In this document: one piece after another, positions 29,035 through 35,164 of the stretch
Layout of the letters: each line of letters opens with the position of its first letter
Position numbering within the stretch: the first letter of the stretch is position 1
Assembly (NCBI GenBank): GCA_008015835.1
Contig: SSGH01000007.1
Span: 310,001 to 374,000 of the forward strand
Reading direction: 5' to 3'
DNA: 64,000 nucleotides
Source of the DNA: Lysobacter sp.
Lineage (GTDB): Bacteria; Pseudomonadota; Gammaproteobacteria; Xanthomonadales; Xanthomonadaceae
The notes under the pieces: model-generated
What the model saw: the letters and a program-made list of their open reading frames with translations, nothing else
What the model was told of the DNA's origin: nothing
Databases searched by the model: none
Translations under genes and position numbers: made by a program

Positions 29035-31203
29035 TCACTTCGCGACCGGCGCGTCGGCCAAGCCCAGTCGATCGAGCATGAACGCGAACATCTCGGCGCT
29101 TTCGCGATAACGACGGAAGCGGCCCGATTTGCCGCCGTGACCGGCGTCCATGTTCGTGCGGAACACCACCGGCGCCTTCGACACGTTCACGTCGCGCAGC
29201 CGCGCGACGTATTTCGCCGGCTCCCAGTACTGCACCTGCGAATCCCACAGGCCGGTGCCGACGAACATCGCCGGGTACGCCTGCTTGGACAGATTGTCGT
29301 AAGGCGAATACGACAGCATGTAGTCGTAATAGGTTTTCTTTTCCGGGTTGCCCCACTCGTCGTATTCGTTGGTGGTCAGCGGGATGCTGGGGTCGAGCAT
29401 CGTCGTCACCACGTCCACGAACGGCACCTGCGACAGAATGACGCTGTACTTCTCCGGGGCCATATTGGCGATCGCGCCCATCAGCAAGCCGCCGGCGCTG
29501 CCGCCGTAGGCCGCCACGCGATCCTTCGCGGCGTAGCCGCGCGCGACCAAGGCGTCGGTCACATCGACGAAATCGGTGAAGGTATTTTTCTTCCGGAACA
29601 GCTTGCCGTCCTCGTACCACTTGCGGCCCATTTCCTGGCCGCCGCGAATGTGCGCGATGGCATAGACCATGCCGCGATCGAGCAGGCTCACGGTGGTGAG
29701 GCTGAAGTTCGGGTCGGTGGAACTGCCGTAGCTGCCGTAGGCGTACTGCAGCAACGCGGCTTTGCCGTTCTTCTCGAAGCCCTTGCGATAGACCAACGAC
29801 ACCGGAATCTTGGCGCCGTCGCGCGCATCCACCCACAGCCGCTCGGTGACGTAGTTCGAGGCGTCGTAACCGATCACCGGCATTTGCTTGAGCATGCGGC
29901 GCTCGCCGGTGGCGACGTTCAATTCGTAGGTGGTGGACGGCGTGGTCAACGAGGTATAGCTGTAGCGCAGCCAGGTCGTGTCGGGCTCGGCGTTCGTCGA
30001 CAGCGCCATGGAATACGCGGGTTCATCGGCCTTCACGAACTCTTCCTTCGCATCCGCGCCGGCATCGGCCTTGAGCAGACGGATCCGCTCCAGCCCGTCC
30101 GAGCGCTCGGCGATGGCGGTGAAGCCGTCGAACAGTTCGAAGCCATCGATGAACACGTCGTCGCGATGCGGCACCCATTCCTGCCAGGCGTCGCGCGAGG
30201 CGGCGTCGGTCGGCGCGGTCATCAGCTTGAAATTGGCGGCCGGCTTGCCGTCGGCGCCGGGCGCGTTGGTGCGAATCACCCAACGGCCGTCGAGATGATC
30301 GGCGTCGTATTCCACGTCGCGCTGGCGCGGCGCGAACACGGTGAAGGTTTTCGGGTCGGCGGCCGGCGCGCAGCGCATTTCGCTGGAGACGGTGCTTTCG
30401 ACCACGATGCAGATGAAGGCGTCGTCGCGGGTGCGATCCAGGCCCATATAGAAACTATCGTCTTTTTCCTCGTACACCAGTTCGTCGGCCGAGGCGGACG
30501 TGCCCAGCACGTGCTTCTTCACGCGCACGGTGAGCAGCGTGTCCGGATCGTTCTCGACGTAGAACAAGGTCTTGTTGTCGTCGGCCCAGACCACGTTCGG
30601 GGACACGCCGGTCACCCGATCGGGATACAACTCGCCGGTCTCGAGATTCTTGAAGCGAATGGTGTACTGGCGGCGGCCGTTATCGTCTTCGGCATAGGCC
30701 AGCAAACGATTGTCGCGACTGACGTCGAAATCGCCGACGCTGTAGTAGTTCTTGTCCTTGGCCAACGCGTTCACGTCGAGCAGAACCTCTTCGTCCTGAC
30801 CCTGACTGCCGTCGGCGGCGGCCTTGGCGCGCAGGTACACCGGGTAATCCTGGCCGGCCTTGAAGCGGCTGAAGTACCAATAGCCGCGTTCCCGATACGG
30901 CACCGAGTCGTCGTCCTGCTTCACGCGGCCGACGATTTCGTCGTAGACGCGATTCTCCAAGGGCTTGAGCGGCGCCATCACTTGGTCGGCATAGGCGTTC
31001 TCGGCGTTGAGATACGCCAGCATCTCGGGTTTTTTGCGATCGTCGTCGCGCAGCCAGTAGTACTCGTCGTTGCGCACCGCGCCATGCGGCGCTTTGATTT
31101 CGTGCGGTTTCTTGGCGGCGTCGGGGGGCGGGGGAAGATCGGCGGCGAGGCCGGAGAGCGGCAGAGTCATGAGTAGGCCGAGGACAGTGATTCGAAGGGG
31201 CAT
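29035..31203 (-). CDS. ptrB: S9 family peptidase, oligopeptidase B-like
   Basis: GSYGSSTDPNFSLTTVSLLDRGMVYAIAHIRGGQEMGR, YGGSAGGLLMGA, signal peptide. Confidence 0.92.
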   Translation of the reverse strand: MPLRITVLGLLMTLPLSGLAADLPPPPDAAKKPHEIKAPHGAVRNDEYYWLRDDDRKKPEMLAYLNAENAYADQVMAPLKPLENRVYDEIVGRVKQDDDSVPYRERGYWYFSRFKAGQDYPVYLRAKAAADGSQGQDEEVLLDVNALAKDKNYYSVGDFDVSRDNRLLAYAEDDNGRRQYTIRFKNLETGELYPDRVTGVSPNVVWADDNKTLFYVENDPDTLLTVRVKKHVLGTSASADELVYEEKDDSFYMGLDRTRDDAFICIVVESTVSSEMRCAPAADPKTFTVFAPRQRDVEYDADHLDGRWVIRTNAPGADGKPAANFKLMTAPTDAASRDAWQEWVPHRDDVFIDGFELFDGFTAIAERSDGLERIRLLKADAGADAKEEFVKADEPAYSMALSTNAEPDTTWLRYSYTSLTTPSTTYELNVATGERRMLKQMPVIGYDASNYVTERLWVDARDGAKIPVSLVYRKGFEKNGKAALLQYAYGSYGSSTDPNFSLTTVSLLDRGMVYAIAHIRGGQEMGRKWYEDGKLFRKKNTFTDFVDVTDALVARGYAAKDRVAAYGGSAGGLLMGAIANMAPEKYSVILSQVPFVDVVTTMLDPSIPLTTNEYDEWGNPEKKTYYDYMLSYSPYDNLSKQAYPAMFVGTGLWDSQVQYWEPAKYVARLRDVNVSKAPVVFRTNMDAGHGGKSGRFRRYRESAEMFAFMLDRLGLADAPVAK

Positions 31204-31574
31204 CGAGGGTGGGCTCCGCAGAAGGGCGGTCGGCGTCGACGACGTCGGCGCGCAAGAGCGCACAGCATACCGGACGCCGATGGCGACGCCCCAGGTCGTC
31301 GGTCGCCGCGGGCGCACGCGGGATCGCGAAAGGGTCGCGGTCTCGCCCGCTTGGGGCGGCCGCCGATCTCGCCTCGTCGGCCGCTTCGACCCATGGTCAC
31401 GAATCGACTCGGACTCGCTTTCGGTCGCGCTGGCCGAGGCAGCGGCCCGGCCACGTTGTCTCCATCGGGACGAAGTGCGAACCTACGACACGACGCGCAT
31501 CATCGACGGTGCCGACGGCGCGATCCGAGCAACGGGATACCGCCTGGGCACGCACAAGACGCAAGGAAAGCGCC

Positions 31575-32765
31575 ATGCCGAAGACCATCAACGTCAGCAT
31601 CAACGAATGGGCGGTGGTGGACCGCGACGCCGGGGCCGAGTTGATGACCACCGACATGATCGACTGCGTCGCGATCGCGATCCGCACCGAAGATCGCATC
31701 GGCCTGACCCATATTTTCGACAAGGCGGGCGATCGCGAAAAATTCCCCGCCTACGTTCCCGGGCTCGATCAATTCATCGGCGCGCTCGGCGACAAGAGCC
31801 AAATTCGCGAAGTGCATATCGTACGCAATCGTTTGGGTGCGGACGAAGAGCCCGACAACGCCCTCGCGCGAGTCCTCGCGCGACATCTGATCGATCGCGG
31901 CCTCGTCGAAGCGGGCGCGATCCGGATGCATGAGGATAGCGGCTGCACGATCTCCCCGAAGCGGTTTTATCTTTCCGAGCACGACAATCCTAAGATTTAC
32001 CGAAGCGCGTTCGCCAATACCGAATTGGAAGGATTTTCGCCCGAGGACACGGAAAATATCAAACCGCGCTTAACGATCGGAAAATTCGAAAACACAGGTT
32101 GCGACGCGCACCCCGCCGAGATCGCTCCGCTTCGATCGACGCAGGGCGAGCCCTTCCGCCACAAAAAGAGCGCACGCTCGGATGGCGAGCCGTTCGAGCG
32201 CAGGCCGACAGAACGACCGTTTTCGACCGAGCCGCAAGCGCGCGAGGTCGACCTCGAACGCCCAGAGCCCGCCAATAACCCCAAAAAGCGCGCGCGCGCC
32301 GCGCTGGAAGATTCGCACGCGAAGGACGGCGGATTGCGCACGAACTTCGACGGAACTCACTCGGAGTCCGGCGAAAAAATCGCCGACCCCGATCTGCCTT
32401 CGGCGAAAAAATCGAAATCGCAAACGGCGCATGCTCGCGAGGCCGACACATCGCTCGGGGACCCGATGCTCGAAGACATTCGGCGCAGGTTACAGGGCCT
32501 ACCGAAATGGCATCAATTCAGCGGCGACATCGACGCAGGGACGCAGGTCGTGTACGCGTTCGCGAAAAAGCAAGGCATCGATTCGCTCACTTCGCTCTTG
32601 CCTGCGCCGAGGGGCAATGAAGCGATCATGATCGAAGGCCTCAACGCAAAGGGCGAAACTGTCGTGCCTCAGGATGCGCTGCGCTGGCGAGAAGTGTCGG
32701 CGCCGACCCAGCCCTCGCCTTCGCCCGACGCCCCGCAGCCGGGCCGACGACATCAGCAGCTTTAA
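31575..32765 (+). CDS. Candidate X-T4SS effector: CheD-like deamidase domain + charged linker + divergent XVIPCD-like C-terminus
   Basis: 396 aa; ELMTTDMIDCVAIAIRTEDRIGLTHIFDKAG (C31/H46/T25) resembles the CheD catalytic segment; C-term DPMLEDIRRRLQGLP...QVVYAFAKKQGIDSLTSL...GNEAIMIEGL, Pro/Gln tail. Confidence 0.6.
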   Translation: MPKTINVSINEWAVVDRDAGAELMTTDMIDCVAIAIRTEDRIGLTHIFDKAGDREKFPAYVPGLDQFIGALGDKSQIREVHIVRNRLGADEEPDNALARVLARHLIDRGLVEAGAIRMHEDSGCTISPKRFYLSEHDNPKIYRSAFANTELEGFSPEDTENIKPRLTIGKFENTGCDAHPAEIAPLRSTQGEPFRHKKSARSDGEPFERRPTERPFSTEPQAREVDLERPEPANNPKKRARAALEDSHAKDGGLRTNFDGTHSESGEKIADPDLPSAKKSKSQTAHAREADTSLGDPMLEDIRRRLQGLPKWHQFSGDIDAGTQVVYAFAKKQGIDSLTSLLPAPRGNEAIMIEGLNAKGETVVPQDALRWREVSAPTQPSPSPDAPQPGRRHQQL

Positions 32766-33109
32766 CGGGCGATGACCTCGACGCTGCGCGTGCGGATCGA
32801 TCGCCGACGCGACAGCGCACGCCGCCTCCCGACGCCCTACGCGGTCCGTCGGATCGCCATCGCACATCGGCGCATTCGGTCCGAACGAAGGCGGTCGAAC
32901 GCCGCGACCGATTGAACACTCTAATCGGGCTGTGGTATCCAGGGCGCGAGGCTTCCGGCCTCGACGGACAACCGAGCATGCGGCCGCCCACGCTTCGCGG
33001 GCCGCGATTCGCGCGAGGTTCTCCGGTTTCATGCAGTCGCGCAACGGACCATGCTCGGACATCGACACGATGCTCCGCCTCGACGCCCTCTTGATTGGAG
33101 GAACAGCAC

Positions 33110-35164
33110 ATGCCTTATCAAGCCTCGGACGGCCGCGATCCCGCGGTCGGGATCGAAAACGCCTACACCGCGACCGCCGACGATCTGGCGACTTACGACG
33201 CGGCCCGACAACGGATCGCGGCGATGCGTCCCGATTCGCCTTCCTTCGACATCAAGGACCCGAACCGGTACGTGTTCGTCGCCGCCTTCGACGGGACCGG
33301 CAACGATGCGACGCAAACCCTCGACTCGCGCACGAACGTGCATGCGCTGTACGAGAACTACGACAAATTCATCCACGGCGACGGCCCCGATAAGCCGGGT
33401 TTCAGCCGCATGCACGCCCGCTACATCGAAGGCCCGGGCACGCAAGAGAGCATGCGCCAGAACGTGCCGGACCAAGCCAACGGCAACACCGTGCAGGACC
33501 GCGTGTTCGAGATGTACAAGGACCTGGGCGATCAAGCGCGGCGCTGGAAGCAGGAAAATCCGGATGCGCAGATCAGCGTGGTCACCTTCGGCTTCAGTCG
33601 CGGCGCGGTGGAAGCGGCGGAATTCGCCTCGGTGGTCGGCAAGTACGGCATCCAAGCCGATCTAGGGTACGCCGTGCAGCGGGACGACGACCTGCGCAAC
33701 GCCAGCCAGAGTTGGTCGGACTGGGCGCGCGGACGGCCGCCGACCGTGCAGGACAAAGAATTCCGCGAGTTGTCGGGCGAAATCGTCTCGCCGGGCAAGG
33801 CGCCGATCGCGGCGGTGCTGTTCGATCCGGTGGCGACCGGCGCGGCCGAGCAGCACGATCGCATGCTGCCGAAAAACATCGACACCGCGATCCAGTTCAC
33901 CGCGCTCGACGAGCACCGCGTCACCTTCCCGGTGAACAAGACCGTCACCGACGCGATGGAGAACGCGAATCCCGATCGGTTCGCGAACATCGGCTTGGCC
34001 GGCTGCCATTCCGACATCGGCGGCGGCTACGCCGACGGCAAAGGGCTGGCGCAGATGTCGGGCAATCTGGCGGGTCAGTATTTGAACGATTTGGTCGGCC
34101 ATCGCATCCATCGCGAGGTGCAGCCCGATCCCGACAGCTTGGTGGTGCACGATTCCAACTCGACGTTCTTTCAGCGCATCGGCTACGCGAAAACCGGCTT
34201 CTGGTACGCCGACCGCACGCAGGACACGCCGAGCCTGCAAGGCGTCGACGGCGATGTGCGCGTCGGCCCCGGCATCGACAACAACATCATCGGCAAGAAC
34301 CGCGTCGCGCTCGACTCGGTGCACATGCATCCGGAGACCAGCGTCGACGATGGGCTGCGGCCGAAACAAGGCATTCTCGAATCCCGCCTGCATCCGCGGC
34401 CGGACGACCACCACACGCCGGTGCCGAACGAAACCTTCGTCGGCTTGCACGATCGTTATGAAATCGACCCGACCAAGTTGTTCTTGGAAAGCTCGCAGCG
34501 GGTCTCGACGCTGATGGACCGCAACACCAATCCGACCACCGCGGCGCTGCTGCACGAACGTGCGGACGCCCCCGATGCGCGCCATTCGCGCTTCGGCCTG
34601 GACGAAAGCGCGCAGGGCCGGCTGTCGGCCGCGGTCGCGCTGAGCGCCAAGGAAATGGATATGGACCGCATCGGCGAAGTAGCGCTGAGCCGCGACGGCC
34701 GATCGCTGCTGATCAAGGAAATGAACGACACCCATGCCGACAGCCGCAAAGTCGCGGTCGTCGATATCGACACCGCGCTGCGCACGCCGATGAACGACTC
34801 GCTGCGCGAACTGGATCCCGCGCTCGCGCGTCGGCCCGACAATCCCAAGCCGCAGTCGCTGTACGGCCAGGCGCACGAGTTGCTGCAGCACACCGAGTTG
34901 GGCCGTCAGCATCCGGACCAGTTGGTCGAAGCGGCGTCGCGCGTGGCCTCGCAAGCGCGTCACGACGGCCTGACCGCGATCAGCGGCATCCAACTGGGCA
35001 CCGGCGAAGACGGGCGGCCGACGCTGACCGCGCGCCAGGAGGGCCTCGACGGTCTGAAGCAGACGGCGCCGATGGCGGTCGCGCAGATGTTCCCGAACGC
35101 GCAGGTCGCGCAGCCGCAGCAGGACCGCGAGCCGGAACAGCATCGCGGCCATCATCTCGGCTGA
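33110..35164 (+). CDS. Candidate X-T4SS effector: DUF2235/Tle1-like lipase + XVIPCD-like C-terminus
   Basis: GFSRGAVEAAEF, VLFDPVATGA, GCHSDIGGGY triad motifs; C-term RVASQARHDGLTAISGIQLGTGEDGRPTLTARQEGL with Q-rich tail; GGAGGA RBS. Confidence 0.82.
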   Translation: MPYQASDGRDPAVGIENAYTATADDLATYDAARQRIAAMRPDSPSFDIKDPNRYVFVAAFDGTGNDATQTLDSRTNVHALYENYDKFIHGDGPDKPGFSRMHARYIEGPGTQESMRQNVPDQANGNTVQDRVFEMYKDLGDQARRWKQENPDAQISVVTFGFSRGAVEAAEFASVVGKYGIQADLGYAVQRDDDLRNASQSWSDWARGRPPTVQDKEFRELSGEIVSPGKAPIAAVLFDPVATGAAEQHDRMLPKNIDTAIQFTALDEHRVTFPVNKTVTDAMENANPDRFANIGLAGCHSDIGGGYADGKGLAQMSGNLAGQYLNDLVGHRIHREVQPDPDSLVVHDSNSTFFQRIGYAKTGFWYADRTQDTPSLQGVDGDVRVGPGIDNNIIGKNRVALDSVHMHPETSVDDGLRPKQGILESRLHPRPDDHHTPVPNETFVGLHDRYEIDPTKLFLESSQRVSTLMDRNTNPTTAALLHERADAPDARHSRFGLDESAQGRLSAAVALSAKEMDMDRIGEVALSRDGRSLLIKEMNDTHADSRKVAVVDIDTALRTPMNDSLRELDPALARRPDNPKPQSLYGQAHELLQHTELGRQHPDQLVEAASRVASQARHDGLTAISGIQLGTGEDGRPTLTARQEGLDGLKQTAPMAVAQMFPNAQVAQPQQDREPEQHRGHHLG

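What the first reader, a model, noticed from the sequence alone, without database searches (positions are those of the whole stretch)
31575..32765. CheD-like deamidase domain in a candidate X-T4SS effector
Seen: residues 20-50 read GAELMTTDMIDCVAIAIRTEDRIGLTHIFDKAG. This mirrors the CheD catalytic segment (TTxxxxCVAxxxxxxxxIGxxxHxxxxxG), with Thr at Cys-6 and a His 15 residues after the Cys. A second block, IRMHEDSGCTISPKRFYLSE, sits where CheD has its late strands. A long charged linker and a C-terminus shaped like XVIPCD follow. Known: CheD, CNF1 and BLF1 share a Cys-His glutamine-deamidase fold, and some of these are toxins. Inference: this is a deamidase toxin exported by an X-T4SS, an effector chemistry I do not recognise as described for XVIPCD proteins.
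Basis: partly seen in the sequence, partly recalled or inferred. Interest (0 to 1): 0.78.

Follow-up and report, generated by a model that had tools for sequence, protein, structure and literature searches.

The report
CheD/CNF1-fold domain in Lysobacter T4SS effectors
A gene in this Lysobacter-related genome carries a domain with the predicted fold and catalytic residues of protein-deamidating enzymes, joined to a worn but probable export tag of the type IV weapon these bacteria use on other bacteria; it belongs to a small, unnamed family of such effectors whose target is unknown.

Summary
ORF 31575-32765 (396 aa) reads as quoted. [quoted passage not shown] Twelve homologous domains, from Lysobacter and the window's own genus, keep T25, C31 and H46 in identical spacing (T-x5-C-x14-H). 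The 12 full-length homologues all end in a detectable XVIPCD, the X-T4SS export signal, and the ten genomes holding them have VirB4 and 20 or more XVIPCD hits. By sequence it is not a CheD: no Pfam hit, hhalign negative, no chemotaxis neighbours.

Two cautions concern the window copy. Its XVIPCD is below every cut-off, although an end-to-end alignment beats 1000 of 1000 shuffles. It is also the only member whose catalytic loop (TDGLxGC) is rewritten, to TTDMIDC. No immunity-like gene is adjacent in the loci read.

Best reading: a new X-T4SS effector family with a CNF1/CheD-fold amide-hydrolase domain, most likely a protein deamidase acting on a target the producer lacks or tolerates. Activity, toxicity and target are untested. 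The open-access papers searched describe no such X-T4SS effector. New variant of a known kind.

The parts
31575..32765 (+). Candidate X-T4SS effector gene, 396 aa (stop included)
   Evidence: Open frame; AAGGAAAG at 31563-31570; third-position GC 0.66-0.90 along the gene; orthologue in the same position relative to the S9 peptidase gene in G116
31575..32010 (+). N-terminal CNF1/YfiH/CheD-fold domain, about residues 1-145
   Evidence: AF2 model pLDDT 83.2, pTM 0.81; Foldseek top hit CheD 2f9z_C E 1.7e-6, then NTAN1, CNF1, CNFy, YfiH
31647..31649 (+). Thr25 codon (matched to CheD Thr21 by motif)
   Evidence: Invariant in 12 of 12; at Cys-6 as in CheD Thr21/Cys27 and NTAN1 Ser69/Cys75 (PMC7022378)
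31650..31664 (+). Catalytic loop residues 26-30, TDMID; DGLxG in the other 11 aligned XVIPCD-bearing members
   Evidence: D26T, G27D, L28M and G30D are departures unique to this copy
31665..31667 (+). Cys31 codon, predicted nucleophile
   Evidence: Invariant in 12 of 12; kept in 15 of 16 of the wider set
31710..31712 (+). His46 codon, predicted general base
   Evidence: Invariant in 16 of 16
31944..31946 (+). Cys124 codon in a conserved D-x-G-C motif, role unknown
   Evidence: Cys invariant in 16 of 16
32011..32456 (+). Charged linker, about residues 146-294
   Evidence: Translation; not conserved in the homologues
32457..32702 (+). Divergent XVIPCD-like domain, about residues 295-376
   Evidence: End-to-end score 2.6 bits against shuffle mean -30.1, SD 5.8, maximum -2.2, 0 of 1000 shuffles reach it; local score not significant; the 12 full-length homologues have a significant XVIPCD at their C-termini
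32703..32762 (+). Pro/Gln/Arg-rich tail ending RRHQQL
   Evidence: Translation; glutamine-rich C-terminal regions are described for XVIPCDs (PMC6536674)
33110..35164 (+). Neighbouring gene, 684 aa: Tle1-like phospholipase-type catalytic domain (PF09994, DUF2235) with XVIPCD, a known X-T4SS effector architecture
   Evidence: PF09994 E 2.4e-22 and PF20410 E 1.1e-12; two XVIPCD stretches; GGAGGA at 33097-33102
29038..31317 (-). Divergent upstream gene: S9 prolyl oligopeptidase; a similar gene stands upstream of the G116 orthologue
   Evidence: PF02897 E 1e-119 and PF00326; G116

Best explanation
This is a member of an unnamed X-T4SS effector family of Lysobacter and the window's own genus. Its N-terminal part is a CNF1/YfiH-like cysteine hydrolase with a Thr-Cys-His active site. 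Its C-terminal part is a linker plus a (here very divergent) XVIPCD export signal. Proposed mechanism: VirD4 recognises the XVIPCD and the X-T4SS injects the protein into a neighbouring cell. There His46, oriented by Thr25, activates Cys31, which attacks a carboxamide of a target protein and turns Gln (or Asn) into Glu (or Asp), changing the target's activity. No immunity-like gene is adjacent, so the target is probably absent from the producer, or its modification is harmless there. Shown computationally: predicted fold, conserved residues, XVIPCD in the homologues, X-T4SS genes in the genomes. Inferred: translocation, deamidation, target, and that the window copy is still active.
For: Fold: Foldseek ranks 1-17 are all CNF1/YfiH-like superfamily members, from an AF2 model with pLDDT 83; one of five significant viral-library hits is annotated as CheD. 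Active site: T-x5-C-x14-H in 12 of 12 homologous domains; Thr/Ser at Cys-6 is the third triad residue in CheD and NTAN1 (PMC7022378). Nine domains carry the L-S-G-C motif that BLF1 and CNF1 share around the nucleophile (PMC8960835). One domain has a marginal PF02578 (YfiH) match, E 0.0021. Export: XVIPCD in 12 of 12 full-length homologues, 11 of 13 by Pfam. X-T4SS: VirB4 in 12 of 12 genomes, a virB-type cluster in the window's genome, 20 XVIPCD hits there. Neighbour: a known type of XVIPCD effector. Immunity: no candidate adjacent in the loci read. Precedents for effectors without adjacent immunity: LqqE1, whose target the producer lacks (PMC10504337), and a CNF1-domain T6SS effector in Vibrio (PMC5666596).
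Against: No sequence-level match to CheD; the link rests on a predicted model, with TM-scores about 0.5 and rmsd 5-8 A. The window copy has lost the DGLxG loop, including the Gly before Cys. Its XVIPCD is not significant in local searches and its C-terminal model is low-confidence with no XVIPCD match in the PDB. One paralogue, L040, lacks both Thr and Cys yet keeps its reading frame, so catalysis may not be needed in all members. No wet data.
Confidence: 0.62

Rival explanations
1. The family is as described, but the window copy is a decaying or repurposed effector: it keeps Thr, Cys and His but has lost the catalytic-loop consensus and most of its XVIPCD, and is poorly active or poorly exported.
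For: Eleven departures at otherwise invariant columns against 0-2 in any other aligned member, four of them in the catalytic loop; the only member without a significant XVIPCD.
Against: Frame of 396 codons intact with coding-like third positions throughout; Thr, Cys, His and Cys124 kept; the XVIPCD core still aligns end to end; G116 keeps a homologue in the same place.
Confidence: 0.3
2. Non-enzymatic effector: the fold binds a target protein (as LqqE1 and LtaE bind theirs) and the Cys/His pair is structural or ancestral.
For: Two characterised Lysobacter X-T4SS effectors act by binding; L040 lost Thr and Cys but persists; a second invariant Cys, C124, could pair with C31.
Against: T25, C31 and H46 are among only 18 invariant columns in 12 diverse domains and match the catalytic spacing of the superfamily in a domain with that predicted fold.
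Confidence: 0.15
3. Anti-eukaryotic deamidase: like the CNF1-domain T6SS effector of Vibrio, it acts on protozoa, fungi or other eukaryotes, which explains the missing immunity gene.
For: CNF1 and BLF1 act on eukaryotic proteins; the Vibrio CNF1 effector also lacks an adjacent immunity gene; Lysobacter lives among fungi and protozoa (general knowledge).
Against: The export signal belongs to a bacteria-killing system; I know of no X-T4SS effector shown to act in eukaryotes; LqqE1 shows that effectors aimed at bacteria can also lack immunity.
Confidence: 0.15
4. Cell-wall precursor amidohydrolase of the YfiH/YlmD type rather than a protein deamidase, in keeping with the many peptidoglycan-directed X-T4SS effectors.
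For: YfiH/YlmD are structural neighbours; one domain has a marginal PF02578 match; most known X. citri X-Tfes are predicted to attack the envelope.
Against: YfiH has an active-site zinc, one of whose ligands is an upstream His (own knowledge); the family has no conserved His before Cys31. CheD and NTAN1 rank higher than YfiH.
Confidence: 0.08
5. A true chemotaxis CheD acting at home.
For: CheD is the best structural hit.
Against: No PF03975 match; hhalign against 14 CheD of the same bacterial family negative; no chemotaxis genes nearby; joined to an export signal in the family.
Confidence: 0.01

Closest known systems
CheD chemoreceptor glutamine deamidase (PF03975; Thermotoga maritima 2f9z)
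   Same: Best structural match; Thr at Cys-6, Cys, His on the following hairpin
   Different: No sequence-profile match; hairpin two residues shorter (C-x14-H; CheD C27/H44 is C-x16-H); joined to an export domain; not in a chemotaxis locus
CNF1, CNFy and BLF1 deamidase toxins
   Same: Same superfamily fold; L-S-G-C around the nucleophile in about half of the family; effector-like delivery
   Different: Very low sequence identity; delivered by other routes; known targets are eukaryotic
Vibrio proteolyticus Vpr01570, a T6SS MIX-effector with a CNF1 domain (PMC5666596)
   Same: CNF1-fold effector of a contact-dependent secretion system, no adjacent immunity gene
   Different: T6SS and MIX signal, a recognisable CNF1 domain, anti-eukaryotic
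X-Tfes with XVIPCD (PF20410), for example Lysobacter LqqE1 and LtaE and the DUF2235 X-Tfes
   Same: C-terminal XVIPCD in genomes with an X-T4SS; LqqE1 has no target in its producer
   Different: No CNF1/CheD-fold domain in the published domain list I read (PMC6536674)

Membership tests
X-T4SS effectors (X-Tfe) | C-terminal XVIPCD | tested here: inconclusive
   Window copy: none by Pfam, local HMM score near chance, end-to-end score above 1000 of 1000 shuffles. Homologues: 12 of 12 significant
X-T4SS effectors (X-Tfe) | X-T4SS encoded in the genome | tested here: met
   VirB4 and neighbouring virB-type genes at G000:C7; 20 XVIPCD hits
X-T4SS effectors (X-Tfe) | VirD4-dependent translocation | not testable with these tools
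   Needs a translocation assay
X-T4SS effectors (X-Tfe) | Adjacent immunity gene (usual, not universal) | tested here: not met
   No candidate in the loci read, by eye from open frames; LqqE1 shows that it is not always needed
CNF1/YfiH-like cysteine hydrolase superfamily | alpha-beta-beta sandwich fold | tested here: met
   Foldseek ranks 1-17; on a predicted model, not a solved structure
CNF1/YfiH-like cysteine hydrolase superfamily | Catalytic Cys and His, often Thr or Ser at Cys-6 | tested here: met
   T25, C31 and H46 invariant in 12 of 12
CNF1/YfiH-like cysteine hydrolase superfamily | Amide hydrolase activity | not testable with these tools
   Needs an enzyme assay
CheD (PF03975) | Sequence profile | tested here: not met
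CheD (PF03975) | Chemotaxis gene neighbourhood | tested here: not met
YfiH/YlmD (PF02578) | Sequence profile, and zinc-binding His before the Cys (the latter from own knowledge) | tested here: not met
   One marginal match, E 0.0021, in 16 domains; no conserved upstream His

The most novel reading that the evidence does not exclude
An antibacterial protein deamidase, built on the CheD/CNF1 fold, injected into competing bacteria by an X-T4SS and needing no immunity protein because it modifies a protein that the producer lacks. It would be the first deamidase-fold effector known for this secretion system and a rare antibacterial member of this fold.
Probability: 0.35. Interest if true: 0.75.

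Novelty: new variant of a known kind. Interest (0 to 1): 0.58.

Why it matters
X-T4SS effectors characterised so far are mostly envelope hydrolases, nucleases, or proteins that bind a target. A deamidase-fold family would add a new chemistry, single-residue editing of a target protein, to interbacterial competition, and gives a directly testable case of an effector without adjacent immunity. It also describes a family whose N-terminal domain Pfam and NCBIfam do not recognise.

Tried and rejected
Pfam, NCBIfam, PHROGs and PADLOC scans of the window protein: nothing. PDB sequence searches: nothing relevant. hhalign of the family against CheD of the same bacterial family: negative with 12 and with 16 rows; both profiles are narrow (Neff 2-3), so this is weak evidence of absence. 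First genome-contig scan with the single sequence: nothing; the second, with the alignment, gave named Lysobacter records. Weak hits L011, L012, L013, L036, L037, L038 and L042 were set aside because their frames read as unrelated proteins; L039 and L077 were set aside on score and partial coverage alone. AF2 of the C-terminus on an XVIPCD alignment was low-confidence (pLDDT 70) and Foldseek gave no XVIPCD; since that alignment was itself made of XVIPCDs, a positive result would have been partly circular. An iterated XVIPCD HMM did not help. Home chemotaxis function rejected. The target guess 'prey chemoreceptors' was not pursued: the producers have one or two MCPs themselves.

Full report
Observation. 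T25, C31 and H46 form T-x5-C-x14-H; a second block holds C124. A ribosome-binding-like AAGGAAAG precedes the ATG, and third-position GC is 0.66-0.90 along the gene. No Pfam or NCBIfam model matches the protein.

Family. A search of 299 genomes of the same bacterial family found convincing homologues in nine genomes besides the window's own, in two genera: the window's (g1) and g16. Named records of the same contigs are Lysobacter, including L. antibioticus, plus one Lysobacterales MAG. Three genomes have two copies in tandem by that search, and a fourth, G117, by the profile search. Sampled searches of the order, class and phylum gave no convincing member elsewhere; such samples do not exclude rare members. 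The twelve aligned domains (the window's and eleven others) are 25-33% identical to the window domain and share 18 invariant columns, among them T25, C31, H46 and C124. Three stand-alone versions of about 180-200 aa without XVIPCD were found in two g16 genomes; they keep Thr, Cys and His. One tandem copy in G117 (L040) has lost both Thr and Cys.

Fold. AF2 with this alignment gave pLDDT 83.2 and pTM 0.81. Foldseek against the PDB ranked CheD first (E 1.7e-6, probability 1.00), then human NTAN1, CNF1, CNFy, YfiH and YlmD, with BLF1 at rank 19 (E 0.087); ranks 1-17 all belong to the CNF1/YfiH-like superfamily. TM-scores are about 0.5, so the model gives a fold assignment, not an atomic guide. 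In CheD and NTAN1 the triads are Thr21/Cys27/His44 and Ser69/Cys75/His92 (PMC7022378), so Thr or Ser lies at Cys-6 as here. BLF1 and CNF1 share an L-S-G-C motif at the nucleophile (PMC8960835), and nine of the 16 domains have literal LSGC. By sequence there is no tie to CheD: no PF03975 hit, and hhalign against 14 CheD of the same bacterial family fails. I therefore place the domain in the superfamily and not in CheD.

Export signal. Of 13 full-length proteins (the window protein and 12 homologues), 11 match Pfam XVIPCD. With a model built from 22 XVIPCDs of these genomes all 12 homologues are significant and the window protein is not. For the window protein, local scoring is close to chance: 6.7 bits against a best shuffle of 5.2 with one model, and below several shuffles with the iterated one. 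End-to-end scoring gives 2.6 bits against a shuffle mean of -30.1, SD 5.8, maximum -2.2 in 1000. Among 629 segments of 100 residues from other translated frames, the four that scored higher and the next below (2.0) were XVIPCDs of family members; the best unrelated segment scored -0.8. I read it as a probable, very divergent XVIPCD. I chose the scored range (286-385) after seeing the sequence, which may flatter the score a little; the whole C-terminus (281-396) gives the same score. This end-to-end test was added after the local tests had failed.

Genome setting. The genome has VirB4 in a cluster whose open frames I read by eye as virB1-like to virB6-like with a virD4-like gene on the other strand, and 20 XVIPCD hits. 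The next gene, 33110-35164, has a Tle1-like (DUF2235) domain and XVIPCD; DUF2235 is already listed among X-Tfe domains. Upstream is a divergent S9 peptidase, as beside the G116 homologue, where a frame that reads as tyrosyl-tRNA synthetase follows directly. I saw no immunity-like gene next to the effector in the window or in the fetched effector loci whose frames I read by eye (L043-L048, L050, L051). L049 was fetched but not read, and L051 has a small secreted-looking frame beside the effector that its near relative L050 lacks.

Window copy. It is the outlier of the family: 11 departures at columns otherwise invariant, against 0-2 in any other aligned member, and four lie in the loop between Thr and Cys (D26T, G27D, L28M, G30D). 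In BLF1 main-chain nitrogens of this loop hold the substrate amide, so the change may alter specificity or reduce activity. With the worn XVIPCD this leaves open that this particular copy is decaying.

Mechanism. Inferred: VirD4 recruits through the XVIPCD, the protein is injected, and Cys-His(-Thr) hydrolyses a carboxamide in a target protein. Shown here: fold by prediction, residue conservation, architecture in the homologues, presence of the secretion genes. Not shown: translocation, activity, toxicity, target. The missing immunity gene fits a target absent from the producer, as for LqqE1, or a eukaryotic target, as for the Vibrio CNF1 T6SS effector.

Novelty. The X-Tfe domain list of PMC6536674 has no such domain, no paper in the library holds X-Tfe or XVIPCD together with 'deamidase', and related searches gave none. 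The library is open-access only and supplementary files were not readable, so an earlier mention is possible. CNF-type domains are known in polymorphic toxins and T6SS proteins.

Noticed in passing
window 33110-35164: Tle1-like (DUF2235) effector with two successive XVIPCD stretches (residues 501-568 and 576-643), and no immunity-like gene seen beside it.
   Followed up: partly
L047 (G117:C50), copy L040: Tandem paralogue that has lost the catalytic Thr (to Ala) and Cys (to Gly) but keeps an intact frame and the His; it sits next to an intact copy.
   Followed up: partly
L052, L053, L054 (copies L034, L035, L041): Stand-alone versions of the domain without XVIPCD; published 'atypical T4Es' (PMC10989847) are likewise XVIPCD-less homologues of effectors.
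   Followed up: partly
window 29038-31317; L043, L044, L045, L046, L048, L050, L051: A gene that reads as an S9-type peptidase lies near the effector in most loci although the loci differ; only the window copy was identified by profile.
   Followed up: no
L044 3603-5438, L046 8903-10714, L048 6994-8676: Gene with an N-terminal LysM-like stretch, function unknown, beside the effector copies in g16.
   Followed up: no
window 31944-31946 (residue 124) and its equivalents: A second Cys, mostly in a D-x-G-C motif, is invariant in all 16 domains; role unknown.
   Followed up: no
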